From Peronospora farinosa (taxonomy: Eukaryota; Oomycota; Peronosporomycetes; Peronosporales; Peronosporaceae), in contig CANTFK010000979.1 of assembly GCA_947646735.1 (NCBI GenBank), positions 62,001 to 126,000 on the forward strand: a stretch of DNA of 64,000 nucleotides, given 5' to 3'. This document shows, one piece after another, positions 9,520-34,970 of the stretch (the stretch's first letter is position 1; each line of letters starts with the position of its first letter). Under the pieces are notes generated by a model, which was given only the letters and a program-made list of their open reading frames with translations, had not been told where the DNA came from and did no database searches. The translations under genes were made by a program, and so were the position numbers.

Positions 9520-10598
9520 AGTGATGAAGTGCTGTTTTTTCGATATGGATACCCCAGAATCCAGTTGGATTAGGAGTATAGACCGTGTGTCAGGGACAGG
9601 AGACCAGAGAGACAGGGGCCTCGAAGGGGAGCGACCGTTGGTGGAGAATAATCTGCAGGACCCACAGAAGAAAAATCAGTATCAGGGTACCGGCTAACCG
9701 GTACCGAAGAAAGTTGACCATGGTCCTTCATTGGTCTACCCGGTCCCTCGTCGGTCGACCTCGGCCCCTCGGGGTTCAGCCACTCCTGACCAGTTAATAC
9801 AAGGTCAGACCAGTCGAAGCAAGGAATCAGAGCTTCAGGCAAGGATAGAGTAAAGGAGTTAAATGGATAGGACTATATTAAATACTACTCAATTTGCGAT
9901 CTACTTGGCAAGTCTTCGTCGCGCTGTAAAGGAACTCTATTCTGGCCACACGCCTGTTCCGGGGAAGGGATATATTTGGCCCCCCCGTTGAAGACAGGCG
10001 TGTGGTCAGACACAAGAGCGATCTACGTGGCACGACTCCGTCACCCAAGAAGGACTTGTTCTAAGTTACTCACTGTTCCGGGAAGGGATATATTTTGGCC
10101 CCCCGTCGAAGACAGTTGCGTAGCGAAGTTCAAGGGCGAATAGAGCTCCAGGATATATTTGGACGGTGAGCTCGTTCGAGTAGCAACACCACCCAAGACC
10201 CGCTATCGGAAGCGGTCTCCCTCACCTCAAGGTCCGGGAGCAACGTAAAGGTCAGGTGGTTAATACCCCTGAAACAGAAGGAAAAGGTCAGGGACGACAA
10301 GCGCCCCTGAAGAATTTGGCTCTAAGTTCACTCTCGACAAGGTCGATCGAGTGGCCACCTACCGGCCCACCGAGTGAAGCATATCCACTCGAGCCCCCCC
10401 AGGTCTAACTCCCTCAAAGCAGACGTCCATATAAACTCACTAAGTCCTCCGAAGAGTGCAACCCGCCAGCCGACGGGTACACAAGGTGAGAAGAAGGTTC
10501 ATACGCGGCATCGGGGTACCCCCTCCGACAGTCGGCAGTCCGGCACAGTGAGTGGTTTGGGGTCTCATCATACAATTTTGAGAACCCACTCCATCACA
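9520..10598 (+). mobile_element. 5' LTR of outer element D
   Basis: It starts AGTGATGAAGTG (the consensus is TGTGGTGAAGTG) and ends CCATCACA. It is about 100 bp shorter than the 3' LTR through loss of minisatellite units. The mutated first base would block normal end processing. The Gag ATG follows at once. Confidence 0.9.
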
Positions 10599-13117: not shown

Positions 13118-13256
13118 ATCTGTACGAGCCGAACATTCTAATTGTTGTATCTTTTCATATGTGGAAAACAGCCCAAGGGGTAGATGGGTATTCCAGTTAA
13201 GATTGAAAATATATCGAAGATTGTAAATTACCCTGTGGTCCATGTTGCTTCTTTGA

Positions 13257-13457
13257 ATGAGCCTAATAATTTTTTTTCGAGAAAATGCAGTAATGGAGTT
13301 GGACTTATTGCCAGGCGAGTCTAGGGGGTACTGGAAATACCACGCCCCTACTAAATGGTTCAGGAAAGCGAAAGCCTCTGGAAAGGTCAACAATAACCAT
13401 GCAAATTTGTTGTTCGATACTGGTGCCGAGATATCCATCCTGGATATCGTCTTTGCT
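13257..13457 (+). pseudogene. Outer element D protease, N-terminal part, cut at 13457
   Basis: The reading has LLFDTGAEISILDI, the retropepsin active-site Asp-Thr-Gly box. It is cut six residues later by the inserted block. The missing remainder resumes at 27967 on the same strand. Confidence 0.85.
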
Positions 13458-14148
13458 TGGACCACAGGGTAATTTACAATCTTCGATATATATCCAATCT
13501 TAACTGGAATACCCATCTATCCCTTGGGCTGTTTTCCACATATGAAAAGATACAACAATTAGAATGCTCGGCTCGTACAGATTCAAGCCTGGAAAGCGTC
13601 CTCATTTGCCATCTTCTCGAGTTTCTCCGGGAACATCCCTGCATGCTTGGCTGGGTTGTACCATTGACGGAACAAATTGCAAAAGCCCTCCATCTGGCAC
13701 TTCCCAATCTCATGAATCTCTCCACAAATTCGGCATACAAACAGGCAGCGATCAGACGAGTGACCCTTCCATCCACAGCGGTCGCAGGTCAATCTTTTCC
13801 AACAATTCAGATCTCCATGTTTCTTGGACCCGCAATAAGCACATCTCGTATTTGGGGTCGCTGATGACGGGCCGGGTCGCTGGTCCACTGCCTGGTGATG
13901 TTGGTCGTCCTCCCTGGTCGGTAGATTCTTTGAGAACCTCATACTTGGGTCCCTCCCTGCTTCTTTCTCCATAAGGTAGACTCGCGTTAGATCTCCTTCG
14001 TTCTCTGAAGAGTCTGGGCTGGAATCTTCAGAGCTCGAGTCTTCCAGGCGTCCGCACTGCATGTATGGAGCGGCGGTTCATATCTCTCGGCCTGTCTGGT
14101 AGTGCCGGTGCCTTCTGACGAAACTTGTTTGATCCAAACAACATCTTG

Positions 14149-14212
14149 CAATACTTTAGGTCATCCAGATAATTATATGTCAATATAATTATCTGGATGA
14201 CCTAAAGTATTG
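14149..14212. repeat. Perfect 30-bp-arm palindrome made of cob sequence
   Basis: The arms are 14149-14178 and 14183-14212 with a 4-base loop. The right arm is the cob codons for [10 protein letters not shown] on the minus strand. The left arm is its inverted copy and touches the gag junction. Confidence 0.9.
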
Positions 14213-14372
14213 GGATAATAAAAAATAAAAATAAAAAATATTAAAAATAATATAATTAAACCAAATAAATCTTTTGTATAAAAATATGGATAAAAGGGTA
14301 TATTTTCTGTTTTTAAAGTAATACCTAGAGGATTGTTAGAACCAACTTCATGTAATAAAATTAAATGTATAA
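14183..14372 (-). pseudogene. cob: Mitochondrial cytochrome b fragment
   Basis: The minus strand reads [16 protein letters not shown], then [14 protein letters not shown] and [10 protein letters not shown]. These are conserved internal blocks of cytochrome b, the quinol-oxidising core of complex III. About 60 codons are present. Both ends are cut: the right one by a join into rps3, the left one in the palindrome. Confidence 0.9.
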
Positions 14373-14378
14373 CATAAT

Positions 14379-14712
14379 TTAAATTTTTTTAATTTTTTTT
14401 ATAACCTTTTTTTTAAAAAATTTTGAATTTAATGAGATATTTAATGGTTTAAAAAAAATCCATAATTTTATACTGCAAATTCCAGAAGGTGTTTTAAATT
14501 CATTAAAATGGTATTTTATATCATATTCCAATGTATTTAATGGTATTTTACCTTTTTGAAAAACCATTTTTTTTTCCTTTTGGATTTATTTAAACGACCT
14601 TTAAATTGTAAACGATATCCAATAAAATTTGAAAACATTTTAAAAAATTCTTGAAGCATATTATCTATATTATTTATAAATTTTTTATGTGTTTTTTTTC
14701 TTTCTAATGTTT
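14379..14712 (-). pseudogene. rps3: Mitochondrial rps3 C-terminal fragment
   Basis: The minus strand reads FKGRLNKSKRKK, then KGKIPLNTLEYDIKYHF and GICSIKLWIFF. These match the C-terminal domain pattern of ribosomal protein uS3 (GRLNGA, GRVPLHTLRA, GVKVWIF). The N-terminal half is missing. Confidence 0.85.
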
Positions 14713-14719
14713 GTTTATT

Positions 14720-14895
14720 TATGTAGGTGTTCGAGGTTTCTTAGATAAAATTTCTGTAGATAAAATTTCAATATTTGAAACAAATTGGTTAAATTTTATA
14801 AAAAATAATCATGTTACTATTTTAGAAGAAGCTTTCTTTAGGAGCCATATCAAAAAACAGTTTTTTAGAAGCTTCATCTTCAAGAGGGTTGAATA
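14720..14895 (+). pseudogene. atp1: Mitochondrial atp1 C-terminal fragment
   Basis: The plus strand reads YVGVRGFLDKISVDKI, then NWLNFIKNNHVTILEEAF, the C-terminal helices of the ATP synthase alpha subunit. The reading then passes into unrelated sequence (about 14840 on) that shifts to another source before its stop at 14896. Confidence 0.8.
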
Positions 14896-14928
14896 AAATA
14901 CCGTTCAGTTCAGCCATTTCATGAAATA
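14829..14928 (-). pseudogene. Unidentified coding-like fragment within the mitochondrial mosaic
   Basis: The minus strand is open for about 34 codons and reads like protein (MAELNGILFNPLEDE, then SKKLFFDMAPKESFF, then a stop). I do not recognise it. It is less AT-rich than its neighbours. Confidence 0.35.
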
Positions 14929-14930
14929 GT

Positions 14931-15283
<353 letters not shown>

Positions 15284-15509
15284 GAATTCTTGAAATTTTA
15301 AATAAACGATAAATACTTTTAGAACGTCCAGTTAAAACACATAAATTTTTAATTCTAGTAATTGATGAATTTTGATCAAAAAAAAACCATTTTTGTTGCA
15401 ATTTCCATCGTAAATTTTTTTTAATATTTAAATTTTTTGAAATAATTTTTAATGTTAATCTATTTTTTTCTAAATTTTTAAATAAATAACGTTGTTTAAT
15501 GCAAGACAA
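15284..15509 (-). pseudogene. rps14: Mitochondrial rps14, C-terminus replaced
   Basis: From 15509 the minus strand reads MSCIKQRYLFKNLEKNRL, then [20 protein letters not shown], the zinc-free mitochondrial form of uS14. The usual ending is gone. The frame runs on into antisense cox1 (to 15120), which explains the strange tail. The start overlaps the neighbouring unknown ORF, so the 5' joint is also a fusion. Confidence 0.85.
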
Positions 15510-15772
15510 GATGCTATAATTAAATACTTGTATAAATTGTTATTATTTTGTGTTTTTTCTGGATTTAAATTTTCTTTTTCTTCAAAATTTAAGTCTTCTT
15601 TTTCTTCTAATAATTCTGTTTTTAAGTCTATAATGTCCTGTTTATTCAAAAAATTTAAATTAAAAAGATCTAAATAAAAGATAATATAATTTAAACTTAT
15701 AATTAAAATAATACTTATAATGATTTTTATATTTTTTTGTAATAATATTTGTAATTTTTTTGTTAATTTCAT
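15470..15772 (-). CDS. Unknown mitochondrial ORF, shorter paralogue
   Basis: A 100-codon ORF has an N-terminal amphipathic or hydrophobic segment (about residues 12-38) followed by a Glu/Lys-rich stretch. It resembles the N-terminal half of the ORF at 15839 (KKLQI, then DLFNLNFLNKQDIIDLK against DPFDLNFFNKRDILDLK). Oomycete mitochondrial genomes carry such lineage-specific ORFs. It is fused into rps14 at its 3' end. Confidence 0.5.
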   Translation of the reverse strand: MKLTKKLQILLQKNIKIIISIILIISLNYIIFYLDLFNLNFLNKQDIIDLKTELLEEKEDLNFEEKENLNPEKTQNNNNLYKYLIIASCLALNNVIYLKI

Positions 15773-15838
15773 AATTTTTAATTGTTTTTAAATTATTAAA
15801 TATTATAAGAGTTAATATTCAAAAAAAATTAAAAAATT

Positions 15839-16390
15839 ATGGAATTAATAAAAAAATTACAAATAAAATTACAAACAAAATTAGCAGAAAATTTAAAAAT
15901 TATTACAAGCATTCTAATAACTTTAAGTTTGAGTTCTATTATCCTTTATTTAGATCCTTTTGATTTAAATTTTTTTAACAAAAGAGATATTCTAGACTTA
16001 AAAGAAAATTTAGAAGAAAAAGAGGATTTAAAAAAAGAGGATTTAAACTTAGAAAAAAAAGAAGAAAAGACTAATAATAATATCTATTATTATTTATTAG
16101 CAGCCAGTGTTGTAGTGGTAGGTGGTATAGTTTTATATTGTTACTTTAATGATGGTTCAAATAACCCTGATTTAATAAAAGAGGGTTTTGAGGATATATT
16201 AAAAACATTAAATGCAAGATATCATGAATATTTTCTTGATCCAGACACGGGGCGTACAGGAACACTTTTCAGAAAAGTCATTTATCGTGGTATGCCAAAC
16301 GAGTATAATATTTATCCACCATCATCCATTTCAGCAACAGATCACTTTAAACCATTTGTTCATAGACAAATAGATCATAGACAAGCGATA
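15839..16390 (+). CDS. Unknown mitochondrial ORF, longer paralogue
   Basis: The reading has two predicted membrane segments (about residues 20-42 and 85-102) separated by a Glu/Lys-rich linker, then a soluble part with DPDTGRTGTLFRKVIYRG. It ends by running into rps8 sequence in another frame, so the native C-terminus is missing. It lies head to head with its paralogue across 66 bp. Function unknown. Confidence 0.5.
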
Positions 16391-16755
16391 CTCTTTCAAA
16401 TTTATTTTCAAAAATAAAAAACGGTTACTTAGCAAAAAAATCAAAAATAGTTCAACAAAAGTCAAAACAAAGTATAAATATTTTAAATATTTTAGTTAAA
16501 GAAGGTTTTATAAAAAGTTATAAAATAAATTCAAAAAATCAATTAGATATTTATTTAAAATATAGAAAAAATAAAGCAGTTATTATTGAAATAAAACGTT
16601 TATCAAAACCTGGAAAACGTTTATATATAACTAATAAAGATTTATATAAGAATAAAAAAGGATTTTATATTATTTCGACATCAGTAGGTATTTTAACAGA
16701 TTTACAAGCTAAAAAATTAAATGTAGGTGGCGAATTAATTTGTAAAATTTTTTAA
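16387..16755 (+). pseudogene. rps8: Mitochondrial rps8, nearly complete, start missing
   Basis: The frame opens with DTLSNLFSKIKNGYLAKKSK, typical of uS8 after the initiator. It continues through RLSKPGKRLYI to GFYIISTSVGILTDLQAKKL and GGELICKIF, the conserved C-terminus, then a stop. The first residues are replaced by the unknown ORF. Confidence 0.9.
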
Positions 16756-16764
16756 AATAAGATT

Positions 16765-17111
16765 ATGTTTAAAATATTAAAAAAAATACCAAAATAAAAA
16801 ATAAAATTTTTTTAAAAAGTCCTTTAGGAAATATTAAACTTTTTTTTATCGATAAAATTTTTATTTTTCCTCAAAAAATAAAAATTTTTAGTAAAAAGAA
16901 AACAATTTTTTTTGAAACATCTTTAGGTTTATTATCTTTAAAATTTATTAATAATATTTATTTTTTTATCAAAAAAAATAAATTATTAATAAATTTTAAT
17001 ATAAAAAATAAAAAAAATATTTTAAATTTATATAATAAGTTAATTAAAATAAAAATAAAAGGTGTTTTACAAGGTTTTAAAATTAGTTTACTTTTTATAT
17101 TAATTATTTAA
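16765..17111 (+). pseudogene. rpl6: Mitochondrial rpl6, frameshifted and cut
   Basis: It begins MFKILKKIPK and stops at once. After a one-base shift in an A/T run it continues SPLGNIKLFF, then TSLGLLSLKFINN and KGVLQGFK, the pattern of uL6 N-terminal half. The C-terminal half is missing. The gene lies 9 bp after rps8; rps14-rps8-rpl6 is a natural ribosomal cluster, which suggests this piece of the mosaic is collinear with mtDNA. Confidence 0.75.
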
Positions 17112-17206
17112 TAGTAATTTTTAAAATAACAAAATTTTATAATATACTATAACATTCTTATATTAATGTTTATTTTATCTTAAAGGATATAATTTTTTTA
17201 TTGTTT

Positions 17207-17289
17207 GGAGAAAGTAGGATTTGAACCTACGTAGAACTTAATTCAACAAATTTACAGTCTGCCGCTTTTAACCACTCAGCCATTTCTCC
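17207..17289 (-). tRNA. trnY: Mitochondrial tRNA-Tyr (GUA)
   Basis: This is 83 bases. The acceptor GGAGAAA pairs with TTTCTCC, the anticodon loop is CTGTAAA with GTA, a long variable arm is present as in class II tRNA-Tyr, and the T-arm is GGTTCAAAT. Confidence 0.9.
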
Positions 17290-17309
17290 TTTAAATAATA
17301 AATTATTAT

Positions 17310-17380
17310 GTGATTAGTGGGACTCGAACCCACAAAGTTTACTTGGAAGATAAAAGATTTACCAATTAATCTATAATCAC
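17310..17380 (-). tRNA. trnG: Mitochondrial tRNA-Gly (UCC)
   Basis: This is 71 bases. The acceptor GTGATTA pairs with TAATCAC, the anticodon loop is CTTCCAA with TCC, the stem TTTAT/GTAAA pairs, and the T-arm is GGGTTCGAGTCCC. Confidence 0.88.
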
Positions 17381-17459
17381 AGAGAAAAATGTCGATTCTA
17401 TTATTATCCCCATTAATTTAACAATGGAAATACCAAATACTGCCTTTGGGTCCATTAAA

Positions 17460-17528
17460 GCAAAAAAAGGGACTCGAACCCTCAACATTAGAATGGTAAT
17501 ATTGTTTTAAAATATTCAAACCAAAAAT
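17460..17528 (-). tRNA. tRNA remnant, identity unclear
   Basis: A T-arm (GGGTTCGAGTCCC) and a possible D-arm are visible. The anticodon stem closes on an 8-base loop (ACCATTCT) and the 5' acceptor strand has no partner. It is likely a broken tRNA gene. Confidence 0.45.
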
Positions 17529-17547
17529 AAAATTTATTGTTTTTTGT

Positions 17548-17606
17548 AAATTAAAATTAACTTTATTTATATATCCTTTTTATATAAATAAAGTTAATTT
17601 TAATTT
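17548..17606. repeat. Perfect 26-bp-arm AT-rich palindrome near the numt right end
   Basis: The arms are 17548-17573 and 17581-17606 with a 7-base loop. It lies 36 bp from the right junction. It has no coding content, so it may be a native mitochondrial hairpin. Confidence 0.85.
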
Positions 17607-19568
17607 AAACATTCTTAAATTAATTTAAAAATTTTAGGAAAATCGTCGTGCCTTCGTCCGCTGACATGCTGTCAATACTTCCTCCAATTCTTCTACATCC
17701 GCCAGACGCAACATAGTCAACTTGTCTGCTAGCTCCGGGTCGTCCACCGTCAAAATGTAGTGATCGACATGATCCTTCTGAATCTTGGGCGACCCATCCT
17801 TAATCTTCACATTCGCCCTGAGTACAAGCACATTCAGGCGGTACAGATAATCCAGCGGGGTCTCTTCCGATCTTTTCTTCGCATGGTAGTACTGACGGGC
17901 GACCGGTACCCCCGTGCCACAGAACCGAATCATGAATTCTTGCATTAGGTCCTTCCATTTTCCTCGGACTGAGCGACCCAATTGACGGTACCAATTCTGT
18001 GCCGGTCCAGTCAGAAACCTTCCACAACGAGACATCGTTCGTCATCTGGTGCTTGGTCTCTTATAAATGCTGTCTTGACCGTTGATACCCAGCTGCGCGC
18101 CGAGAGTTTGATACGAGGGACCATATTTGGTATCTGTCCCAACGCTGCGTTCGCCATCATCGACTGAGGTCCCCTCAAATCCATGTTGTCAGGGTCGAAC
18201 TCACAGGAACCGACGTATTCCATGTCGACGTCGGTCATCGTGTGACCTCTTGTCATTTGTATGTCTGGATTCTGGTCATGGTGAGCGGTCGTCCTTTGCG
18301 CCCCTGGTCTTCCTCCTGCTACACTCCCGTTAGGATGTGCCCGCGGTACTTGACGTTCATTCAAAAATCTTGCCATCGCCGGGTCGAAGAGAGGTCTGCA
18401 GATCACCTACCGGGTAGGTAGGTCTTTCCCCCCCCCCAGCATCTTCGTCACGGGGCAGAGCAAACTCCAATTTCTTCTCTTGCTGATTTTCCATTGGCTG
18501 AAAATCGGAATGATTTTCATTCTTGCCACGCGTCGCCGTTCCGAGACCCCGTGGTTCCTGCTCCGCGCTGCGCTGCGCGCTCGGGTTTAGAGCAGCGCCG
18601 CCCCAGTAGGGCCGAAAGGCATCCTAGTGACCGATCCAGTCGAGGACGATCCTGGGGACCATGGGGTTGCTGCTATTTGTCCGCTTGGCATCAGGTGCTG
18701 AGATGGGCCTTGCTTCGCCCCTGGTGGCCGGCGGCTCCGTACATGTGGGGACCCACCGTGATGTCTTGAAGCGTCATCTGGCTGTCGTTGGACCGCATGT
18801 GTGTAGGTGTCACCAGAGGTGGGTGCTCCGTTGCTGGTGTGGTACCCACCAGGATCGACAGACGCTTGTGCATATGCTCTAACGTTGTTGTGATTCTGTC
18901 GAATCCCAGGGATAGCAGATCGTCCGGTCGAACCGACCTGCGACCATGTTCGCTTCACGAAGCATGGTGACCAGCGCTGTGATCGCGTCCGTGACGGAGT
19001 GCAGCCGTGGCAGGGTCGACACCGGCCCAGTGAGTTGACCCAGCTGCCGGATCTCCAGGATCTTTGCGACGGGGTCGCTCTCCAGGAACGCGTTCAGCTT
19101 GCGTTGGTGGTAGGCCCTCGTGACATCAGCGTCTGTCCATGACGCCAGTCCTGACTTCTTGGGGCCTATCGACTTGGTGTTTCCTGGCGCCTTCATCCGG
19201 AACTTTGTCGGCTTGGATTGCGCGATCTTGTTTTTTTTGTTTTTTGGGGACCTTAGCCTCTCGGTTTTCACCGTCGGCTGATGGTCTTCTGGATCATGAT
19301 AGGCGTCATGACCCAAGGTGTCCTCTACGAGGACATAGGGAGGGTATTTAGGTTTATATTCAATAAGTTCAACCTCGACCATGTTGCCCGGGCCCCTCCC
19401 AAGGTTCGGTCGGTCCTTCGATCCTTTGTTTTTTTCTTCTTGAGTCACTGGCGATCGGTCTTCCAGCGGCTCTTCGGTCTTGTGCTCCTTCTTGACATGA
19501 ACATCTTTATCGTCTTGGGACTCGCGGTGAAATCCCGCTTCTTCCGAAGATCCGGGCACGCGCACCAT

Positions 19569-20748
19569 TGTGATGGAGTGGGTTCTCAAAATTGTATGAT
19601 GAGACCCCAAACCACTCACTGTGCCGGACTGCCGACTGTCGGAGGGGGTACCCCGATGCCGCGTATGAACCTTCTTCTCACCTTGTGTACCCGTCGGCTG
19701 GCGGGTTGCACTCTTCGGAGGACTTAGTGAGTTTATATGGACGTCTGCTTTGAGGGAGTTAGACCTGGGGGGGCTCGAGTGGATATGCTTCACTCGGTGG
19801 GCCGGTAGGTGGCCACTCGATCGACCTTGTCGAGAGTGAACTTAGAGCCAAATTCTTCAGGGGCGCTTGTCGTCCCTGACCTTTTCCTTCTGTTTCAGGG
19901 GTATTAACCACCTGACCTTTACGTTGCTCCCGGACCTTGAGGTGAGGGAGACCGCTTCCGATAGCGGGTCTTGGGTGGTGTTGCTACTCGAACGAGCTCA
20001 CCGTCCAAATATATCCTGGAGCTCTATTCGCCCTTGAACTTCGCTACGCAACTGTCTTCGACGGGGGGCCAAAATATATCCCTTCCCGGAACAGTGAGTA
20101 ACTTAGAACAAGTCCTTCTTGGGTGACGGAGTCGTGCCACGTAGATCGCTCTTGTGTCTGACCACACGCCTGTCTTCAACGGGGGGGCCAAATATATCCC
20201 TTCCCCGGAACAGGCGTGTGGCCAGAATAGAGTTCCTTTACAGCGCGACGAAGACTTGCCAAGTAGATCGCAAATTGAGTAGTATTTAATATAGTCCTAT
20301 CCATTTAACTCCTTTACTCTATCCTTGCCTGAAGCTCTGATTCCTTGCTTCGACTGGTCTGACCTTGTATTAACTGGTCAGGAGTGGCTGAACCCCGAGG
20401 GGCCGAGGTCGACCGACGAGGGACCGGGTCGACCAATGAGGGACCCAGGTCTACCAATGAGGGACCGGGTCGACCAATGAGGGACCCAGGTCGACCGATG
20501 AGGGACCGGATCTACCAACGAGGGGCCAGGTCGATCAATGAGGGGCCATGATCAACTCCCTTTGGTACCGGTTAACCGGTATCCTGATACTGATTTTTTT
20601 CTGTGGGTCCTGCGGATTGTTCTCCACCAACGGTCGCTCCCCATCGAGGCCCCTGTCTCTCTGGTCTCCTGTCCCTGACCCACGGTCTATGCTCCGAATC
20701 CAACTGGATTATGGGGTCCCCAAATCGCAAAAACAGCACTTCACCACA
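19569..20748 (-). mobile_element. Single LTR of the inner circular copy
   Basis: It reads TGTGGTG to CATCACA on the minus strand, 1180 bp. It is shared by the antisense-ORF side and the gag side, as in a one-LTR circle. The gag-proximal part matches the outer 5' LTR (CCATCACA; CATATAAACTCACTAAGTCC). The ORF-proximal part matches the outer 3' LTR (TTTTTGCGATTTGGGGACCC). Confidence 0.9.
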
Positions 20749-20794
20749 GCCGCCCCCTGCACTTGCTCAGCCGTACAACGGATTGAGCACGCGC

Positions 20795-22674
20795 ATGTCT
20801 TCAATTCCTTCGTCACGTGAGTCCCTTACTGTGACCTTTGTTGATCGTCCATCTCTAACTCGTGCGTTCCAGCCATGTCTTCCCCCGGTTCTGACCCACC
20901 GTCTGCTGACCCACCGTCCGCTGACCCACCGTCTGAAGAGCCGACTTCGATCGTCGTCGCGCCTTCGGTTGACTCTCCATGTAGAGAGGCGTCCTTGGCC
21001 GACCTTCCCGTGACGGTGTCTTCGCCGTTGAGTGCTGCCGAAACTGTTTTCGTTCAGAGCTCTCCTGTTTCCTCCGCTTTGCCTCCTGCCGAGACGGCAG
21101 ATCCTCCTGTCGCGCCGGTCTCCATGGTTGACAACCCGTCTTCCGCGCCAGTCGACCTGTGTGTAGCTCTGCATGAACAGCAAGCTCTCGTGGACGCGCA
21201 ATCTCGCCGCATAGAGGACTTCGAGGGTCGGCTAGGTGTCGTTCCCCCTTCGGTCACCTTATTGGCCACCCATTGTGAGCGTTTGGAAGAGACGTTACGC
21301 GACAATTCCCGGCTGGTGGTCCAACTCCGCGAAGCTCTTCAGCGCGAGAAGACACTAGTGGATCGCCTGCGATGGAAGATCGACCACATTCGAAGCCGTT
21401 ACTCGCTTCTTGCTGCAGATCTCGATCACGTCGACTTCTCCGATGGGCCACCTCCGGGACCAGCTCCTCCTTCGGCAGCTTCGCCCCCGGCCGTATGTTC
21501 CCCTTCGAGGCCGGCGAAAGCTCTTGGCAAACGTTCCAGGCGTCCGTCCCCCCGTGTGCCTGCCAAAGTTTCCAAGCCTCCGAGGCCCGACACATCCGCG
21601 ATACCGCTGTCGGAAGTCTCTGGTGGCCGCTCTCCTGTCATGCTGGAGTCTTCGGACGACGACCTCAGCGACGACAGCGAGACAATTCGGGCGGCCCTGG
21701 TCAAGTATCGTTCTTCCGGTCTTCGCCCCACCAGTTCAAGTTCTTCACGTCTTCTGCCGACGTCCGCTCCCCCATTTAGGACCACCTCGGCTTCCGGCCT
21801 CTCGCTGAAACGGGCGATGTTCGGGACGTCGGACTCGGACACTGAGTCGTCTGCGGAAAAAGAAAAGAGCGCGCCCACTGTTGTGGACAACAATTCGCCC
21901 CTTTCGACCGACTCTTGCTTGCTCCCCAAGGATGTCATCATCCCAGGGTACATGCAGTCGAAGACCTTCTCTGCCGCGGAAGTGGCGTCTTGGCCGGTCG
22001 ACCTGGTCAATTTTTGGTGCATGGTAACAATGTCTTCCACAGACTTGGTCGACCAGCTGGATCTACCTTGGGGTTGGTTCGGTCCTCCGGACGGAAACCT
22101 CGACCGCCCTCCCAAATGGAAGAAGTCGTTGGTGAACCCTCTGATGATCCAGAGATTTCTGGATGCTGAACTTTGGGTAGAAGCTCGTGTTCCCATTCAA
22201 CCCGCTTCCTTTCGACCTGTTGGCTGGTTCACCCAGTTGGCAGCGGCCTACATCCAGTTTGACGAAGAGCATAGTCAAGCACTTTGGGAGGCGACCCACT
22301 GCCTGTGGATCTCCAAGGACCAAGCGCGAGCGAACTCTTTCCTCGCGTCCTACTACAACGCGCGGAAGAAGCGTCGGAGTCGGGCGAATCGAGCGTGGCG
22401 GGAGGTGGTCGACTTTATCTTCGTTGAGATGAGTAAGGGCCGCTGCGATCTCGACATTTTCCTGGACCCCTTCTTCCGACATCTTCCTCGAACCCGCCGT
22501 GTAGTTTACTGGTATCCTGGTCGTGAGGAGGGATCAGATCCAGTCGACCTACTTGAGGCCCTTCGGGTGTCGGATTCCGCGTGGCCGTGGCTCACCCAGT
22601 ATCGGTTGTCTTCTGTGCTCCATCCTGGCGCGCTAGTTCCACGCCTCAAAGGCAAGTTTGAGCCATCCGTTTAG
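20795..22674 (+). CDS. Antisense ORF of inner element D, intact, unknown function
   Basis: The main frame 20875-22674 is 599 codons. It runs opposite to gag-pol and starts 127 bp from the LTR. If the candidate intron 20817-20872 is spliced, an upstream ATG at 20795 joins in frame and adds eight residues. The protein has a Ser/Pro-rich N-terminus, a probable coiled coil (about residues 90-170), a basic Pro-rich stretch with GKRSRRPSPR, an acidic patch SSDDDLSDDSET, and a Trp-rich C-terminal domain (about 375-599; PWGWFGPPDG, KKRRSRANRAWREVVDF). I recognise no family. The outer copy is equally intact, while gag and pol are broken. Antisense ORFs in this position are known in plant Tat-lineage elements. 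Confidence 0.7.
20817..20872 (+). other. Candidate intron before the main antisense-ORF start
   Basis: Donor GTGAGT, branch-like CTAAC at 20855-20859 and acceptor TTCCAG give a 56-bp intron. Splicing joins ATG at 20795 in frame with the long ORF. It is identical in the outer copy. Confidence 0.5.
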
Positions 22675-22927
22675 GTCTTCCCTTGAACATGAATCTTCTT
22701 TTCCCTTCGATCCTATTTTGTGTGCTTGTCCATCTTCCATCTCCTCTGCCATACTTTCCTCTGTTCCAGGTAATCTTGGCAATCTTCCTCCTTTGTTTTC
22801 CATTCTCCTATACTCCTAACTCGTGGAAGTTCGAAATCGCCCCGCAGGCGACCCAAGTCTTCCAACGAGGGGCTGGGCCGACCATTGAGGGACTCGGTCC
22901 AGCTTCTAAAAAACTTGCTACCGTCTG

Positions 22928-24345
22928 CTAGTTTTCATGGCTTTGCATTACTTCGAAGCGTTTATGGCTTGTCTTCTTGCGCCCGAAGTCCCGGAGTAAG
23001 GCTTCGCAATTCAGATCCACTTCGTCCACCCACGAGGGGTCAGGGTGTTCCTTCCATTGCAAGAGGAATTCTCGTTGTTGCCTTCCATACCGACTTTTTT
23101 ACCTGTGCGGCTCTCTATATTTCTTTGACTTCATACTCGCCTTCTTCCAATTCCCACACCCTGCTGTCTTCTGGTAACAGACATTCGTCGAAGTCGACTC
23201 GATCTGTTCTATCCACTTCCAGCTCGCTGTTAGGTCGATCGGGGAACTCTCTGACGGGCTTGAGCATGAAGATGTGCATGATTGGGAATAGTCTATATTC
23301 TGTGCCTCGTAATTCCAAACGTACTGCATGATCTCCGACTAGTTCTCGAACTCGGAACGGTCCGTGCCAGAGGTGGGCCAATTTCTTGGCATACCCCTCC
23401 TTCAACCGGTCTAAGTATAGCCATACCCGGGACCCTAGCTGAATTTCGTGGCCGACTGCCCCTTCATTTTGTGCTTGCACCCGAGCCTGACTAGCCGCCC
23501 GTAAATTCTCGTTGACTTGGTCCCTTGCTCGCTGATAGTGACTCTGAATCCGATATCTCCATCTCCGAGGTCCTGATTCTTGACGTCGAGTGTTCACCAC
23601 CGGTAACATAGTCTCAAGAGTGGTCCTAGCATCCCATCCATGTACCAGATAGAACGGTGTTTCCTCCCGCACTCTGTCTTGAGCCGTGTTTAACGCGAAC
23701 GTTAAACGTTCCGCGTACTCATCCCAGTCTCGCTTTCCCACGTCGGCTACGTACATCTTGAGCGATCTTGTTAGAGTCTGGACCATTCTCTCCGCAGTGC
23801 CGTTCGCTTGAGGTCGGTAGGCCATGGTCGCTCTCTGCCGTTGACCCACCATGCGACTGAAAGCTCGGAAGAACTCCAACATAAACCCCGGTTCCCGATC
23901 GTGACGGATCGTCTCACTGGCGCCAAAATGGCGAAAAAAACATTCTTCATATCCCTCAGCTACTGTATGGGCCGTACGTGACGCACTAGCCTTAGCCATC
24001 ACATAACCTGTGAACAGGTCGACCCAGATCAGTAGTTCCGTATTTCCTTTATACGACTTGGGGAGAGATGGTATGTGTGTGGTCCATCGCGATAATTTTT
24101 GGGAAAGGTACGTCACCTCAAATTCCCCGGAGACTACCCTTGTAAAGTGGGCCTCCCTTTTCCAGTCTCACAATCCATGCACTGACCCACATATTTCTGG
24201 ACGCTCCGGAAAAGACCCCTTCAATGACAATATCGTCGGATCTGATGATAAGTACGCCCGATTCCCTGATGGCCGCCTTCCAAACTCGTATGATAGCGAT
24301 GGAGGACGTCGGCTTGGAGACTCTCAGGTATCACCAATCTGGCAG
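22928..24345 (-). pseudogene. Inner element D integrase with chromodomain
   Basis: The zinc-binding part (24345-24117) has VLHRYHTSLEGGHQG and CMDCETGKG with an in-frame TGA between them. The core (24116-23115) carries the DDE residues in WVDLFTGYV, IRHDREPGFM and ANGTAERMVQ, and a C-terminal domain with LWHGPFRVREL. After a frame change, 23089-22928 reads REFLLQWKEHPDPSWV, a chromodomain, which in chromoviruses targets insertion to marked chromatin. The TGA and the frame change are shared with the outer copy. Confidence 0.85.
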
Positions 24346-25169
24346 TTATGTCTCGGTCGTCTCCCTCGATTCTCTGCCGGGGAAGTACATTCTTCACTTA
24401 TCTCGTAATCCTCCGACATTTTGCTGCAGGTTCTGGCCGCTTCCACTGACAAGTCCTTCCAGTCTCCATAAAAGTATGCCTTCAACTCGCGTACCCAGCT
24501 CTCTTCTTCTTGCGCATCTCGGATACTATCCATCCGGAGTTGTTGTACCACATCTTCTTGCATGACCTCTCCCGATATTTTGACGGGGAACCGTGATCTC
24601 GTCACCGCAGATACCCTGATCGACGGACCCCGGTCTCTAGGGACCAACACCTCTGGCAGCCGATTGATTGTTTCTAGACCTGACCACTCTCCTCTTGTTA
24701 TCGACTCGACCCCTTGCTGCTGATGTAAAGCCGCACTGGCCAACTGGTCTGCGCTCTGATTCCAGTCTCGTTCCACATGTAAGACTGCGTGGGTGGGCCA
24801 CGACTGGAGCTTACTCAACGCCTTGGCCCGCAACGGGGATAAACCTGAAGCTTTGCATTCAATCTCTTCACGCATCTGCCTTATAACCAAATTGGAGTCT
24901 CCACAGATAATCAAACGCCGTCGCTCCATTGGCTCCAGCAGGTCAAAACCCAGCAACATGCCCTCATATTCTGCCTCATTCACTGTAGAATTGTCGAGAT
25001 ATTTCGATGCAGATGCGACTATAGTCCAAGCAGGAAGTATCCACACAATAGCGCTGCAGGCGCCTCCCCCTTGTTTCACCCGGGCCGACCCATCGAAACT
25101 CATCACATACAGTTCTTCGTTCGGTTCCACTGTGGGCGTTGGTAGGTTGACCACTTGCCTGGCTTGCAT
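24324..25169 (-). CDS. Inner element D second RNase H
   Basis: The reading has SFDGSARVKQGGGACSAIVW, NEAEYEGMLLGF, IICGDSNLVI and DWNQSADQLAS. These give the four acidic positions (Asp, Glu, Asp, Asp) of an RNase H1/archaeal-type RNase H. This domain follows the decayed gypsy RNase H. Dual RNase H of this kind has been described in plant Tat elements and in some oomycete Ty3/gypsy elements. Near its end this copy differs from the outer one and runs into another frame (about 24,400). Confidence 0.8.
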   Translation of the reverse strand: MQARQVVNLPTPTVEPNEELYVMSFDGSARVKQGGGACSAIVWILPAWTIVASASKYLDNSTVNEAEYEGMLLGFDLLEPMERRRLIICGDSNLVIRQMREEIECKASGLSPLRAKALSKLQSWPTHAVLHVERDWNQSADQLASAALHQQQGVESITRGEWSGLETINRLPEVLVPRDRGPSIRVSAVTRSRFPVKISGEVMQEDVVQQLRMDSIRDAQEEESWVRELKAYFYGDWKDLSVEAARTCSKMSEDYEISEECTSPAENRGRRPRHNCQIGDT

Positions 25170-25272
25170 CTTGGGAGCAATTGACGACAGAATGGAGTCT
25201 ACATTTTCTCGAGGCGTAATACTGGCAGCTAACGCCCCCAGTACCTGGTCTTCGCCTTTCTTGCATCACAAT

Positions 25273-27457
25273 CTACAAAGTCCACTGGGACAAGAGAGCG
25301 GCCCAATTTCCCAAGCGGCCTTGCAACCCCGAAGACTTCACTAGCCAGGCTAGTGTAGAATGTCTCGTCAGAACCTTGAAAAGTCGGGTGACCAACATCG
25401 TGAAGCAAGTCTCCAATATTCGTAAAAAAACCAACACTTCCTTTTCCACTGTACTATAGTTCAACTCGTTTAACTTGAGAGTTCGGCTCGTAAACATTAC
25501 TGGCATGTACAGGCCGTCGTAATTCCGCACCAACGACGCCGAGATGGCCCAATCACTTGCGTAGACAATAATAACTGCCTCTCTATCCGGGTCAAAATGT
25601 CGTAGGATGGGCGCCGTAGCAATCTTGTTCTTGAGCATGGCAAACGCTACTTGTACCTTCGACCATTTTTCTTCGTCGTCTTCTTGGGCCGCCACGTCAT
25701 CGTTAGCCTTCAATTTGCACCTCCAAGCGTGAAAATCCACCTCTCTCAGTTTATAAGAGATTGACGCGTATATGGCATAATCTTCGATGTACCTGCTGTA
25801 GTAATTTAGGCTTCCTAGAAAGGATTGCATAGCCTTCAGCGTTGTCAGTAGAGGTAGGTCGACCAAAGACTGAAGATCCTTTGGGTGGGCCTCTAGTCCC
25901 CCTTTGGAAAATCGATGTCCAAGATACTCGACCTTCCGACATCCCCACGTACTCTTGACTGCACTGACCGACAAATTTCTATAGTCACACACGCCTAGCA
26001 GCCGCTCTACGTTCTGGCATAATACGTCCCACGATTCGGCCGGAACAAGTATGTCGTCAATGTATGATCGTCGACCCAATACAGAGAGGCCCGATTTTGC
26101 ATCGGGTTCCCCTGTTGCGAACAAATCCTCTGTTTCCTCTGTGGCCGCCCCTGGCAAAATCCGTAAGAATCCATATAACGCATTATCCAACAACCTTTGA
26201 TATATCTGAGGCGCATTCTTAAGCCCAAAAGGCATCCGAAGCCATTCAAATAATCCCAGTGGAGTAACGAAAGCTGAGATTAGTCTCGCCCTTTCGGTCA
26301 TACTGACGACCCAAAAACCACTCGCCATATCAAGAGAACAGTACCATAAAGCTCCGTCCAGGTCCTCCAGTAATTCATTAATCAACGGCATCGGGTATAC
26401 CATGAGCTGAGTGAGATCATTCACCAACCGATAGTCGATACACAATCGAATATCGACCCCATTCTTCTTTACGGCTGGCCCATGGTGGGGTGGAAGGCTG
26501 AATGATCTTTGCCGATAACAGTTCTTTGATCAGGTCGGCTAGCTTCTCTCTGAATTGAGGGGCCACCTTCCGTATGCGTTGCGCAATCGGTCTTGCATTC
26601 CCCATATCGATATCGCATATCGCTCCTCGGGCGGCCGGGGGTAAAGCGTTACCTTTGCCCATCAGCAGATGTCGTTTCTTCCATATTATTTGTCGCAACC
26701 GGTCCACCTCTTCGGGAGTGTTCCCATCTGGATCAGGAATCTGTATATCTTCTAACGCAATGCCTTCGGATGAGGGGTCCACTTCCGGTACGACCGCCCA
26801 CCCTGGCCTTATGTCCTCGGCCCAAAGTTCCCCACTCTCGAAAGAACACACCTGGTCATCTGCCTGTAACAAGTCTACCAGTTTGGATTCCTTCTCCTTG
26901 GTGGTGGTCACTGCATGTAGGTCTTCTTCAAATACACTCCGCTTTTTGGCGGTCCCCTCCTGCCAATTCGCCCTCTCTTCGCACGGTTGTTCTTCTCTGT
27001 CGGGTACCGGTTGGTGCGTTATATTCATCATTGGAGCTGGGGCCTCTGGTCGCTGTAAGATGTGTGACGGAGTCTTATACTCTGGTCTCTCCACTAGTGG
27101 CCCCTCTTCCTCTTCCGTTGGGTCGACCTGATGGTCGACTTGGTCGGTGGTAAATTCATAAGCCAGATTTAGCCATTCCGCATATCTTCGAGAGCCTACC
27201 GAGACAAACCCTGGCGTTCTAGGAACTTGCTCCCTAGTCAACCACATACCTACCTTGGTATCTTCATGCAATGTTAAGGGGCGAGGGCTGACATTGGTTA
27301 TCTTCAAAATCGGTCGACGCCCTATCCCTTGTATCATGGTGGTCACCCATCGTTCGCCTCTCGTGACCCACAATTTCCACTGTTCCGAGGTCGACCTTTT
27401 GAGAGGCACTTCCGTACATCCTCCAACGAATATCTGTACATACCGACCCAATTTCAC
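25273..27457 (-). pseudogene. Inner element D protease tail, RT and decayed gypsy RNase H
   Basis: Two frames overlap at 26417-26445. The RT has LCIDYRLVNDLTQ, MPFGLKNAPQIYQRLLD and the active-site box SYIDDILV. A 14-bp deletion at about 26472 (against the outer copy) shifts the frame before the first RT block. The following gypsy RNase H reads IIVYASDWAISASLV and TRHSTLAWL: Tyr replaces the usual first Asp and Arg the usual late Asp, so it is probably not catalytic. The same Tyr occurs in element C. Confidence 0.85.
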
Positions 27458-27473
27458 ATCCGATACTCGAGTA

Positions 27474-27966
27474 TTAAACAGTCCTTCGCCCGGTAAACTG
27501 TACCCTGACTTTATCGGGGAGACAGAGAGTTCCGTCGGCCAAGTCTAACCGGATACCGGCTGGGACCATGAAGTCCATTCCCAAAATTGCATCTTGGCCT
27601 ACCATAGGGCCTACCCACACCTTAAAGATGTACACCAAGTTCCCATTCAGAGTGACCTTGATGCGAGTGCGCCCCTCCGTGGTATATACGGCTTCCCCAA
27701 TACCAATACATTTTTGTCGTTCACTTTCATCAATTTGGCAGCCTACCTTACGAGCAAAGGCGATATCCAGAATGGATATCTCGGCACCAGTATCGAACAA
27801 CAAATTTGCATGGTTATTGTTGACTTTTCCAGAGGCTTTCGCTTGTCTGAACCATTTAGTAGGGGCGTGGTATTTCCAGTACCCCCTAGACTCGCCTGGC
27901 AATAAGTCCAACTCCATTACTGAACTTTCTCGAACAAAATTATTAGGCTCATTCAAAGAAGCAACA
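27474..27966 (-). pseudogene. Inner element D protease
   Basis: It starts next to the circle break and reads LLFDTGAEISILDIAFARK, then GQDAILGMDFM: a retropepsin with its DTG box and the later Gly-rich flap region. It is the only uninterrupted protease copy in the window and serves as the reference for the break in the outer copy. Confidence 0.85.
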
Positions 27967-30451
27967 CATAAAGTAGCTATCCAAATTAAATAAAAGTGAG
28001 CGACAAGAATGTGTTGGTATTGGGGAATCCGTATATATCACGGAGGGACGCACTCGCATCAAGGTCACTCTGAATGGGAACTTGGTGTACATCTTTAAGG
28101 TCCTATGGTAGGACAAGATGCAATTTTGGGAATGGACTTCATGGTCCCCGCCGGTATCCGGTTAGACTTGGCCGACGGAACTCTCTGTCTCCCCGATAAA
28201 GTCAGGGTACAGTTGACCGGGCGAAGGACTGTTTAATACTCGAGTATCGGATGTGAAATTGGGTCGGTATGTACAGATATCCGTTGGAGGATGTACGGAA
28301 GTGCCTCTCAAAAGGTCGACCTCGGAACAGTGGAAATTGTGGGTCACGAGAGGCGAACGATGGGTGACCACCATGATACAAGGGATAGGGCGTCGACCGA
28401 TTTTGAAGATAACCAATGTCAGCCCTCGCCCCTTAACATTGCATGAAGATACCAAGGTAGGTATGTGGTTGACTAGGGAGCAAGTTCCTAGAACGCCAGG
28501 GTTTGTCTCGGTAGGCTCTCGAAGATATGCGGAATGGCTAAATCTGGCTTATGAATTTACCACCGACCAAGTCGACCATCAGGTCGACCCAACGGAAGAG
28601 GAAGAGGGGCCACTAGTGGAGAGACCAGAGTATAAGACTCCGTCACACATCTTACAGCGACCAGAGGCCCCAGCTCCAATGATGAATATAACGCACCAAC
28701 CGGTACCCGACAGAGAAGAACAACCGTGCGAAGAGAGGGCGAATTGGCAGGAGGGGACCGCCAAAAAGCGGAGTGTATTTGAAGAAGACCTACATGCAGT
28801 GACCACCACCAAGGAGAAGGAATCCAAACTGGTAGACTTGTTACAGGCAGATGACCAGGTGTGTTCTTTCGAGAGTGGGGAACTTTGGGCCGAGGACATA
28901 AGGCCAGGGTGGGCGGTCGTACCGGAAGTGGACCCCTCATCCGAAGGCATTGCGTTAGAAGATATACAGATTCCTGATCCAGATGGGAACACTCCCGAAG
29001 AGGTGGACCGGTTGCGACAAATAATATGGAAGAAACGACATCTGCTGATGGGCAAAGGTAACGCTTTACCCCTGGCCGCCCGAGGAGCGATATGCGATAT
29101 CGATATGGGGAATGCAAGACCGATTGCGCAACGCATACGGAAGGTGGCCCCTCAATTCAGAGAGAAGCTAGCCGACCTGATCAAGGGACTGTTATCAGCA
29201 AAGATCATTCAGCTCTCCGCCTCGCCATGGGCCAGCCCAATTGTAATTATCGTGAAGAAGAATGGGGTCGATATTCGATTGTGTATCGACTATCGGTTGG
29301 TGAATGATCTCACTCAGCTCATGGTATACCCGATGCCGTTGATTAATGAATTACTGGAGGACCTGGACGGAGCTTTATGGTACTGTTCTCTTGATATGGC
29401 GAGTGGTTTTTGGGTCGTCAGTATGACCGAAAGGGCGAGACTAATCTCAGCTTTCGTTACTCCACTGGGATTATTTGAATGGCTTCGGATGCCTTTTGGG
29501 CTTAAGAATGCGCCTCAGATATATCAAAGGTTGTTGGATAATGCGTTATATGGATTCTTACGGATTTTGCCAGGGGCGGCCCCAGAGGAAACAGAGGATT
29601 TGTTCGCAACAGGGGAACCCGATGCAAAATCGGGCCTCTCTGTATTGGGTCGACGATCATACATTGACGACATACTTGTTCCGGCCGAATCGTGGGACGT
29701 ATTATGCCAGAACGTAGAGCGGCTGCTAGGCGTGTGTGACTATAAAAATTTGTCGGTCAGTGCAGTCAAGGGTACGTGGGGATGTCGGAAGGTCGAGTAT
29801 CTTGGACATCGAGTTTCCAAAGGGAGACTAGAGGCCCACCCAAAGGATCTTCAGTCTTTGGTCGACCTACCTCTACTGACAACGCTGAAGGCTATGCAAT
29901 CCTTTCTAGGAAGCCTAAATTACTACAGCAGGTACATCGAAGATTATGCCATATACGCGTCAATCTCTTATAAACTGAGAGAGGTGGATTTTCACGCTTG
30001 GAGGTGCAAATTGAAGGCTAACGATGACGTGGCGGCCCAAGAAGACGACGAAGAAAAATGGTCGAAGGTACAAGTAGCGTTTGCCATGCTCAAGAACAAG
30101 ATTGCTACGGCGCCCATCCTACGACATTTTGACCCGGATAGAGAGGCAGTTATTATTGTCTACGCAAGTGATTGGGCCATCTCGGCGTCGTTGGTGCGGA
30201 ATTACGACGGCCTGTACATGCCAGTAATGTTTACGAGCCGAACTCTCAAGTTAAACGAGTTGAACTATAGTACAGTGGAAAAGGAAGTGTTGGTTTTTTT
30301 ACGAATATTGGAGACTTGCTTCACGATGTTGGTCACCCGACTTTTCAAGGTTCTGACGAGACATTCTACACTAGCCTGGCTAGTGAAGTCTTCGGGGTTG
30401 CAAGGCCGCTTGGGAAATTGGGCCGCTCTCTTGTCCCAGTGGACTTTGTAG
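27967..30451 (+). CDS. Outer element D protease tail, RT and decayed gypsy RNase H
   Basis: The protease resumes at 27967 at exactly the codon where the other half stops. A 732-codon frame (28253-30451) then runs through a hydrophilic spacer, the RT (WASPIVIIVKKNGVDIRLCI, SLDMASGFWVVSMT, NAPQIYQRLLD, SYIDDILV) and the decayed RNase H (VYASDWAISASLV). The RT is complete here, unlike in the inner copy. The RNase H lacks two catalytic Asp residues. Confidence 0.85.
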
Positions 30452-30554
30452 ATTGTGATGCAAGAAAGGCGAAGACCAGGTACTGGGGGCGTTAGCTGCC
30501 AGTATTACGCCTCGAGAAAATGTAGACTCCATTCTGTCGTCAATTGCTCCCAAG

Positions 30555-31388
30555 ATGCAAGCCAGGCAAGTGGTCAACCTACCAACGCCCACAGTGGAAC
30601 CGAACGAAGAACTGTATGTGATGAGTTTCGATGGGTCGGCCCGGGTGAAACAAGGGGGAGGCGCCTGCAGCGCTATTGTGTGGATACTTCCTGCTTGGAC
30701 TATAGTCGCATCTGCATCGAAATATCTCGACAATTCTACAGTGAATGAGGCAGAATATGAGGGCATGTTGCTGGGTTTTGACCTGCTGGAGCCAATGGAG
30801 CGACGGCGCTTGATTATCTGTGGAGACTCCAATTTGGTTATAAGGCAGATGCGTGAAGAGATTGAATGCAAAGCTTCAGGTTTATCCCCGTTGCGGGCCA
30901 AGGCGTTGAGTAAGCTCCAGTCGTGGCCCACCCACGCAGTCTTACATGTGGAACGAGACTGGAATCAGAGCGCAGACCAGTTGGCCAGTGCGGCTTTACA
31001 TCAGCAGCAAGGGGTCGAGTCGATAACAAGAGGAGAGTGGTCAGGTCTAGAAACAATCAATCGGCTGCCAGAGGTGTTGGTCCCTAGAGACCGGGGTCCG
31101 TCGATCAGGGTATCTGCGGTGACGAGATCACGGTTCCCCGTCAAAATATCGGGAGAGGTCATGCAAGAAGATGTGGTACAACAACTCCGGATGGATAGTA
31201 TCCGAGATGCGCAAGAAGAAGAGAGCTGGGTACGCGAGTTGAAGGCATACTTTTATGGAGACTGGAAGGACTTGTCAGTGGAAGCGGCCAGAACCTGCAG
31301 CAAAATGTCGGAGGATTACGAGATAAGTGAAGAAGGACTGTTGGTGTACTGCTCTGGCCAGAGATCGAGGGAGACGACCGAGACATAA
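30555..31388 (+). CDS. Outer element D second RNase H
   Basis: It is near-identical to the inner copy and keeps the FDGSA, AEYEG, GDSNL and DWNQSAD blocks. It would supply the RNA-removal activity that the first RNase H seems to have lost. The ATG at 30555 is only the first Met of the open frame; in the native element it is part of Pol. Confidence 0.8.
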   Translation: MQARQVVNLPTPTVEPNEELYVMSFDGSARVKQGGGACSAIVWILPAWTIVASASKYLDNSTVNEAEYEGMLLGFDLLEPMERRRLIICGDSNLVIRQMREEIECKASGLSPLRAKALSKLQSWPTHAVLHVERDWNQSADQLASAALHQQQGVESITRGEWSGLETINRLPEVLVPRDRGPSIRVSAVTRSRFPVKISGEVMQEDVVQQLRMDSIRDAQEEESWVRELKAYFYGDWKDLSVEAARTCSKMSEDYEISEEGLLVYCSGQRSRETTET

Positions 31389-34939: not shown

Positions 34940-34970
34940 GCGCGTGCTCAATCCGTTGTACGGCTGAGCA

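What the first reader, a model, noticed from the sequence alone, without database searches (positions are those of the whole stretch)
13458..27966. Element D appears interrupted by a one-LTR circular form of itself, inserted inverted and without loss
The block has the order protease-RT-RNase H-integrase-antisense ORF-LTR-gag on the minus strand, a circular permutation of element D. The two ends of the block are adjacent in the intact sequence (GTGGTCCA next to TGTTGCTTC), and the two broken ends of the host element are also adjacent (TTTGCT next to CGTAAGG, seen as mutated CATAAAG at 27967). So neither circle nor target lost a base, and there is no target duplication. One-LTR circles are known by-products of retroelements, but a fossil re-insertion with both junctions readable is unusual.
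Basis: partly seen in the sequence, partly recalled or inferred. Interest (0 to 1): 0.9.

Follow-up and report, generated by a model that had tools for sequence, protein, structure and literature searches.

The report
Retrotransposon folded into double palindrome
A retrotransposon in an oomycete-like genome is interrupted by a second, inverted and circularly permuted copy of itself, joined without losing a base; an inversion inside a tandem pair explains this about as well as a re-inserted DNA circle does.

Summary
Block 13458-27966 is an inverted, circularly permuted, one-LTR copy of the Gypsy-type element around it. Both junctions are exact: nothing lost, nothing duplicated, no microhomology. 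The circle reading is only partly supported. The same two breaks in a tandem dimer that shares one LTR give the same novel adjacencies by plain inversion. The products differ only in the orientation of one 215-bp spacer between 8-kb inverted arms, which arm recombination can flip. The patchy identity suggests such arm recombination, and an LTR-sharing direct dimer of this family exists elsewhere in the genome. The block's single LTR matches the host 3' LTR on one side and the host 5' LTR on the other, which points to DNA-level LTR recombination rather than a reverse-transcription by-product. I put dimer inversion at about 0.5, a re-inserted DNA circle at about 0.3, an assembly error at about 0.1. 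It is an unusual rearrangement made of known processes.

The parts
9521..10598 (+). host 5' LTR (start approximate); its first ~217 bp differ from the block's LTR at 20 sites (about 9%)
10599..13457 (+). left half of host element (gag region), ends at break y
   Evidence: (Retrotrans_gag just below its curated cut-off)
13243..13457 (+). 215-bp spacer S, host copy; host-private changes enriched here
13458..27966 (-). inverted, circularly permuted one-LTR copy of the element
13458..14149 (-). inverted copy of 12551-13242 (up to break x)
   Evidence: 98.8% to host, 35 derived sites shared
14150..17642 (.). mitochondrial insert (NUMT), probably composite, inside the block; 1 bp of target lost, no target duplication
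17643..19568 (-). inverted copy of 10599-12549 with ~35 bp missing at 12057-12091
19569..20747 (-). the block's single LTR; matches host 3' LTR on its 5' side and host 5' LTR on its 3' side
   Evidence: polarity
20748..27752 (-). inverted copy of 27967-34986 (RT, RNase H, integrase and antisense-ORF regions)
27753..27966 (-). spacer S, inverted copy; centre of the right palindrome
27967..34986 (+). right half of host element: RT-RNase H ORF 28253-30451, RNase H-like ORF 30555-31388, integrase ORF 31618-32619
33060..34859 (-). 599-aa antisense ORF between integrase and 3' LTR
34987..36167 (+). host 3' LTR (start approximate)

Best explanation
An LTR-sharing tandem dimer of a Gypsy-type element (LTR-internal-LTR-internal-LTR), made by DNA-level recombination between LTRs, suffered two breaks at nearly homologous places, y in one unit and x in the other, 215 bp apart in element coordinates. 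The segment between them was rejoined the other way round without loss. That made two palindromes with a 215-bp spacer. Later crossover between the arms of one palindrome flipped its spacer, and gene conversion between arms kept long stretches nearly identical. A mitochondrial fragment was captured at another break in the inverted copy. Shown: anatomy, exact balanced junctions, the two-sided match of the single LTR, patchy identity, an LTR-sharing dimer elsewhere in the genome. Inferred: that a dimer stood here first, the inversion, the flip, the conversion, the order of events.
For: Novel adjacencies y-x and (x+1)-(y+1) are those of a balanced inversion. A direct dimer sharing one LTR, units 99.3% identical over 3,980 bp and 11,126-11,127 bp apart, lies on contig C235; a four-unit direct array of another repeat family lies on C239 at 10.43-kb spacing. 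Over most tested stretches host and block are closest relatives: at 30300-31300 the block scores 1801 of 1806 bits and the next scored copy 1541; in 12551-13242 98.8% against at most 93% for 19 other loci over 12551-13457; 35 derived sites shared in 12551-13242 and 35 in 27967-29467, gap columns included, or 37 and 27 without gap columns. The block LTR switches once from host-3'-LTR-like to host-5'-LTR-like; 6 columns, about 4 events, right of the switch are derived and shared by block and 5' LTR only (5 outgroup LTRs). Differences are clustered: variance/mean 5.3 against 0.98 in simulation, longest identical run 1,267 bp, 0 of 2,000 simulations as extreme, as expected if inverted arms convert each other; minimum tract lengths averaging 2,068 bp and rarer inversions by crossover are reported for a human palindrome (PMC3723533, passages).
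Against: Needs one step more than the circle model (the spacer flip), and in the cited palindrome inversions are much rarer than conversions (3 against 56). Breaks only 215 bp from homologous positions are a coincidence of about 4% under either model (2 x 215 in ~11 kb). Patchy divergence could have other causes; two patches carry both shared-unique and many private changes (11441-11620: 12 shared, 8 of them in no other copy, 22 private; 29061-29260: 5 shared, 4 unique, 10 private), a third (11801-11960) shares none. In S the block is closer to other copies (up to 98.1%) than to the host (95.8%), and in the gag patch no closer to the host (90%) than to a C235 copy (92%). The outer flanks look like different repeats, so at least one more rearrangement is needed, or the dimer arose by exchange between two separate elements and conversion made them alike. 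The C235 dimer lacks the start of its outer LTR, so its own origin is unclear.
Confidence: 0.5

Rival explanations
1. A one-LTR DNA circle, popped out of the genomic element (or its sister copy) by LTR-LTR recombination, was cut at x and joined end to end, inverted, into a break at y of the same element.
For: Gives the observed order in one step including both spacer orientations. The block LTR looks like a recombinant of the two host LTRs. Host-private changes crowd on both sides of y (20 of 407 sites against 22 of 3,883 elsewhere, p = 1.6e-10, stretch chosen after seeing the data) and block-private ones do not (4 of 407 against 35 of 3,883), as if one molecule was broken and damaged at y. 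Circles consistent with genomic LTR-LTR recombination are reported in yeast (PMC4751563, abstract and passages).
Against: A random target would rarely be the circle's own source, with 234 and 208 first-look candidates of the family in 46.85 Mb, whereas a dimer has the partner next door. No circle is observed. Gene conversion could also give the LTR pattern. Other clusters of differences exist away from y.
Confidence: 0.3
2. A one-LTR circle made as a by-product of reverse transcription of a family RNA was captured at the break.
For: Such circles are described for LTR elements (PMC9694575, passages).
Against: A new cDNA would not carry host-3'-LTR states on one side and host-5'-LTR derived states on the other, unless later gene conversion put them there; host and block share changes not seen in the other sampled copies.
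Confidence: 0.06
3. Assembly error: a wrong inverted walk through a repeat.
For: Palindromic repeats are hard to assemble; reads were not available; long stretches are identical.
Against: The copies differ by 122 substitutions in 11,850 aligned columns, in patches; the block alone carries the mitochondrial insert and a ~35-bp deletion; the host stretch right of y has no better match than 89% among the 39 other scored places.
Confidence: 0.1

Closest known systems
Complex LTR elements, LTR-internal-LTR-internal-LTR (pear; other plants named there; PMC4668562, two passages seen)
   Same: Three LTRs, two internal regions, middle LTR shared; no outer target-site duplication, as that paper says has been suggested for inter-element unequal recombination.
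   Different: The middle stretch is inverted and holds a mitochondrial insert.
Ty circles consistent with genomic LTR-LTR recombination in yeast (PMC4751563, abstract and passages seen)
   Same: One LTR plus internal region; breakpoint readable because the two LTRs had diverged.
   Different: Here no free circle is seen; the copy sits inverted in the element itself.
Large palindromes with arm-to-arm gene conversion and rare inversion (human Y P6; PMC3723533, passages seen)
   Same: Inverted arms around a spacer, long near-identical stretches.
   Different: Arms are retrotransposon halves of about 3.7 and 8.2 kb; conversion is inferred from one genome only.
Autointegration products of LTR elements (mechanism recalled; named in PMC4751563)
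   Same: An element inserted in itself.
   Different: No LTR end lies at either junction and there is no target duplication.

Membership tests
Ty3/Gypsy-type LTR retrotransposon | RT, RNase H and integrase domains, integrase after RT | tested here: met
   RVT_1, RT_RNaseH, RVT_3 above cut-off; rve and SH3_Tf2-1 have low E-values but lie below the curated cut-off; protease not tested
Ty3/Gypsy-type LTR retrotransposon | pair of LTRs in direct orientation | tested here: met
Ty3/Gypsy-type LTR retrotransposon | target-site duplication at the outer ends | tested here: not met
   flanks read; the two flanks match different sets of places (40 of 312 and 40 of 1,263 candidates scored)
LTR-sharing tandem dimer (complex element) | three LTRs and two internal regions with one shared LTR | tested here: met
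LTR-sharing tandem dimer (complex element) | both units in the same orientation | tested here: not met
   13458-27966 is inverted; the C235 pair does meet it
Re-inserted one-LTR circle | permuted copy, ends adjacent in the element, one LTR | tested here: met
Re-inserted one-LTR circle | an extrachromosomal circle existed | not testable with these tools
   no reads or circle data
One-LTR circle from reverse transcription | its LTR does not sort into host-3'-LTR-like and host-5'-LTR-like parts | tested here: not met
   gene conversion is the caveat
Integrase-made autointegration | LTR end at a junction with short target duplication | tested here: not met
   both junctions lie inside the internal region, no duplication
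Palindrome with converting arms | long identical tracts broken by divergent patches | tested here: met
Palindrome with converting arms | spacer found in both orientations in a population | not testable with these tools
   one assembly only
Nuclear mitochondrial insert (NUMT) | mitochondrial genes in nuclear DNA | tested here: met
   flanked on both sides by element sequence

The most novel reading that the evidence does not exclude
A genomic retrotransposon left its chromosome as a DNA circle by LTR-LTR recombination and was put back, inverted and without losing a base, into a break in its own source copy: a fossil of retrotransposon movement without an RNA step, with damage scars on both sides of the receiving break.
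Probability: 0.3. Interest if true: 0.65.

Novelty: new variant of a known kind. Interest (0 to 1): 0.4.

Why it matters
If the circle reading holds, it would be a readable case of the RNA-free mobility that the yeast circle study (PMC4751563, abstract) raises as a possibility. If the dimer reading holds, it shows how LTR-sharing dimers can turn into long palindromes that then keep recombining, and that a permuted, inverted, loss-free copy is not by itself evidence for a circle: one 215-bp spacer orientation is all that separates the two.

Tried and rejected
Gene conversion from another assembled copy as the source of the host-private cluster at 27967-28160: best other match 89% (40 of 208 candidates scored). 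A donor for the divergent gag patch of the block: best other match 92%, the host itself 90% (40 of 216 scored). Family hypervariability as cause of the patches: minor-allele means there are like elsewhere. A simple inversion without spacer flip: gives the wrong spacer orientation at the right junction. Replicative template switching: possible, but the junction set is balanced, which favours cutting and rejoining. Ordinary nesting: in the inverted pair on C230 a complete LTR of the second copy lies between the two, unlike here; this is 1 of 5 inverted pairs within 30 kb in the lists (tallied), and the other 4 were not looked at, so similar palindromes may exist. Target duplication of the C235 dimer: not decidable, start of outer LTR missing.

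Limits: search lists are capped at 40 scored candidates (one search did not list the block itself, though it must match); loci for the 30-31 kb search could not be cut out, so polarity was tested only on 10599-13457 and 27967-29467 (and, with 5 outgroups, on part of the LTR). For two LTR sites (9744, 9752) the solo LTR and the outgroups suggest different ancestral states. Part of the clustering comes from a short run near 31351-31363 beside an indel, where the alignment may be shifted; one search leaves out 9521-9739. The p-value near y is post hoc. Three paper searches failed by time-out, so nothing can be said about what is absent from print.
Full report
WHAT IS THERE. The window is G000:C259:62001-126000 of a 46.85-Mb, 274-contig genome. 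The one host gene that I searched (a fatty acid desaturase, 46553-47749) is closest among named hits to Phytophthora palmivora (89%) and Peronospora belbahrii (84%), and an element ORF is 82% identical to a Peronospora effusa protein. The AT-rich stretch carries a mitochondrial-type tmRNA, which fits oomycetes (recalled). The element has LTRs at about 9521-10598 and 34987-36167 and gag, RT, RNase H and integrase regions (the gag match and the two integrase-ORF matches are below the curated cut-offs; a protease was not looked for).

THE BLOCK. Self-comparison and base-level reading confirm the finding. Call the element parts L (LTR), A (start to 13242), S (13243-13457), B (27967 to the 3' LTR); small letters mean inverted. 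The locus reads L A S | a l b s | B L. The block's two ends are neighbours in the element (x = 13242|13243) and the host's broken ends are neighbours (y = 13457|27967). Nothing is lost, duplicated or shared as microhomology. In 19 of 19 other loci (L002-L020) the matches on both sides of x and of y are next to each other.

(1) 14150-17642 (2-kb bins here have 24-26% GC) is mitochondrial: tRNA-Tyr, tRNA-Gly, mt-tmRNA, a piece of large-subunit rRNA, and pieces of S3, S14 and ATP synthase alpha genes (all below the curated cut-offs, E 8e-8, 1e-11 and 4e-5). The S14 match stops at profile position 83 of 101 and its ORF runs on into the rRNA piece, so the insert looks composite. It lost 1 bp of target and made no duplication. 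(2) Each junction is the centre of a long palindrome, with S as the spacer, + at the left and inverted at the right. (3) The outer flanks 8700-9519 and 36168-37000 match different sets of places; apart from this locus no scored match of one lies within 70 kb of a scored match of the other (40 of 312 and 40 of 1,263 candidates scored), and no target duplication is seen. The first ~217 bp of the 5' LTR differ from the block's LTR at 20 sites.

WHO IS RELATED TO WHOM. At 30300-31300 host and block are almost identical and the next scored copy is at 94%. In 12551-13242 they share 35 derived columns and in 27967-29467 another 35 (18 and 17 outgroup copies; gap columns included), or 37 and 27 sites without gap columns. 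Against this, in S the block is up to 98.1% like other loci and 95.8% like the host. So the block derives from this element or from its immediate sister, or most of it has been made like it by conversion. The three LTRs tell more: inside the LTR, up to 9727, all differences (19 substitutions, 2 indels) group the block LTR with the host 3' LTR; from 9744 on all (10 substitutions, 3 indels) group it with the host 5' LTR; the two sites between (9729, 9737) point opposite ways. With 5 outgroup LTRs, 6 columns, about 4 events, right of the switch are derived and shared by block and 5' LTR only; 9 columns are changes of the 3' LTR alone; 6 are undecided. For 9744 and 9752 the solo LTR gives the other polarity. 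This is what recombination between two already diverged genomic LTRs predicts. The yeast circle paper uses the same logic (PMC4751563, passages). Caveat: the left part of the 5' LTR has diverged, so the left half of the argument is weak, and conversion along the arms would give the same picture.

PATCHY DIVERGENCE. Leaving out 9521-9739, host and block differ at 122 of 11,850 aligned sites, but in clusters: variance/mean per 100 bp 5.3 (simulation mean 0.98), longest run without a difference 1,267 bp; 0 of 2,000 simulations reached either. A short run near 31351-31363 may be an alignment shift and adds a little to this. In the gag patch the block is 90% like the host and 92% like a copy on C235. 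The patches are not more variable in the family. Two patches hold sites shared by host and block and seen in no other sampled copy (8 and 4) next to many private ones (22 and 10), so they are not simply two unrelated copies laid side by side. Long identical tracts between inverted arms point to gene conversion, described for a human palindrome with tracts of kilobases and rarer inversions (PMC3723533, passages). One cluster is special: host-private changes fill S and the first ~180 bp right of y (20 of 407 sites, elsewhere 22 of 3,883, p = 1.6e-10, stretch chosen after seeing the data), while block-private changes do not (4 of 407 against 35 of 3,883). No other scored place matches the right-hand part better than 89%. 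This may be a scar of the break at y, but that is inference, and other clusters (gag, 29185-29254) have no such reason.

MECHANISM. A circle opened at x and joined inverted into y gives L A S a l b s B L directly. A tandem dimer L A S B L A S B L broken at y in unit 1 and at x in unit 2, with the middle turned round, gives L A S a l b S B L: the same two novel adjacencies, with only S at the right turned. That S lies between b and B, 8.2-kb inverted arms, so one crossover flips it without scar. (Breaks at x in unit 1 and y in unit 2, with a flip of the left spacer, do as well, and put both flanks of the y break in one unit, which fits the scar.) Both models need LTR-LTR recombination and two blunt, loss-free joins at places within 215 bp of homology. 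The dimer model needs a flip; the circle model needs the circle to find its own source among the family's copies. LTR-sharing dimers occur here: on C235 two units, 99.3% identical over 3,980 bp and 11,126-11,127 bp apart, share one LTR. I therefore prefer the dimer (0.5) to the circle (0.3), and give a reverse-transcription circle 0.06 and an assembly error 0.1. These odds are judgements.

NOVELTY. The steps are known singly: LTR-sharing complex elements and elements without target duplication (PMC4668562, passages), circles consistent with genomic LTR recombination (PMC4751563), converting palindromes (PMC3723533), mitochondrial DNA captured at breaks (recalled). The combination, an element folded into two palindromes with exact balanced junctions, did not show in the titles and abstract starts listed; three further searches failed, so I make no claim about print.

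Noticed in passing
14150-17642: Mitochondrial insert, probably composite, with pieces of S3, S14, ATP synthase alpha and rRNA genes, two similar ORFs facing opposite ways (15470-15772 -, 15839-16417 +), tRNA-Tyr, tRNA-Gly and mt-tmRNA; parts match other contigs of the assembly at 99-100% and no contig matches all of it.
   Followed up: partly
33060-34859 (copy at 20875-22674): 599-aa antisense ORF between integrase and 3' LTR, 82% identical to a Peronospora effusa protein, no Pfam match. Against the C235 copy differences fall 37/33/73 on codon positions 1/2/3 with no gap or stop in 1,131 bp, and 17/18/41 against the C230 copy, so it seems a selected gene; but host against block gives 1 synonymous and 8 non-synonymous codons.
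   Followed up: partly
G000:C239:3678-37300 (positions only): Four direct units of another repeat family at 10.43-kb spacing, each with a ~150-bp piece that matches the mitochondrial insert (82%), as if a repeat with a captured mitochondrial piece was amplified in tandem.
   Followed up: no
L077, L048, L049 (G000:C235:48254-63498): Direct LTR-sharing dimer of the same element family; the start of its outer 5' LTR is missing.
   Followed up: partly
G000: C36, C183, C194, C248 (positions): Four more pairs of inverted copies of this family 17-24 kb apart, not looked at; they may be ordinary nesting, as on C230, or further palindromes.
   Followed up: no
2544-2882 and 35187-35338: Arrays of a ~20-bp repeat inside the LTRs that vary in length between LTRs.
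   Followed up: no
27967-28149: Dense host-only changes right of the break y, with no better match than 89% among scored places; looks like a mutation shower at a repaired break.
   Followed up: partly
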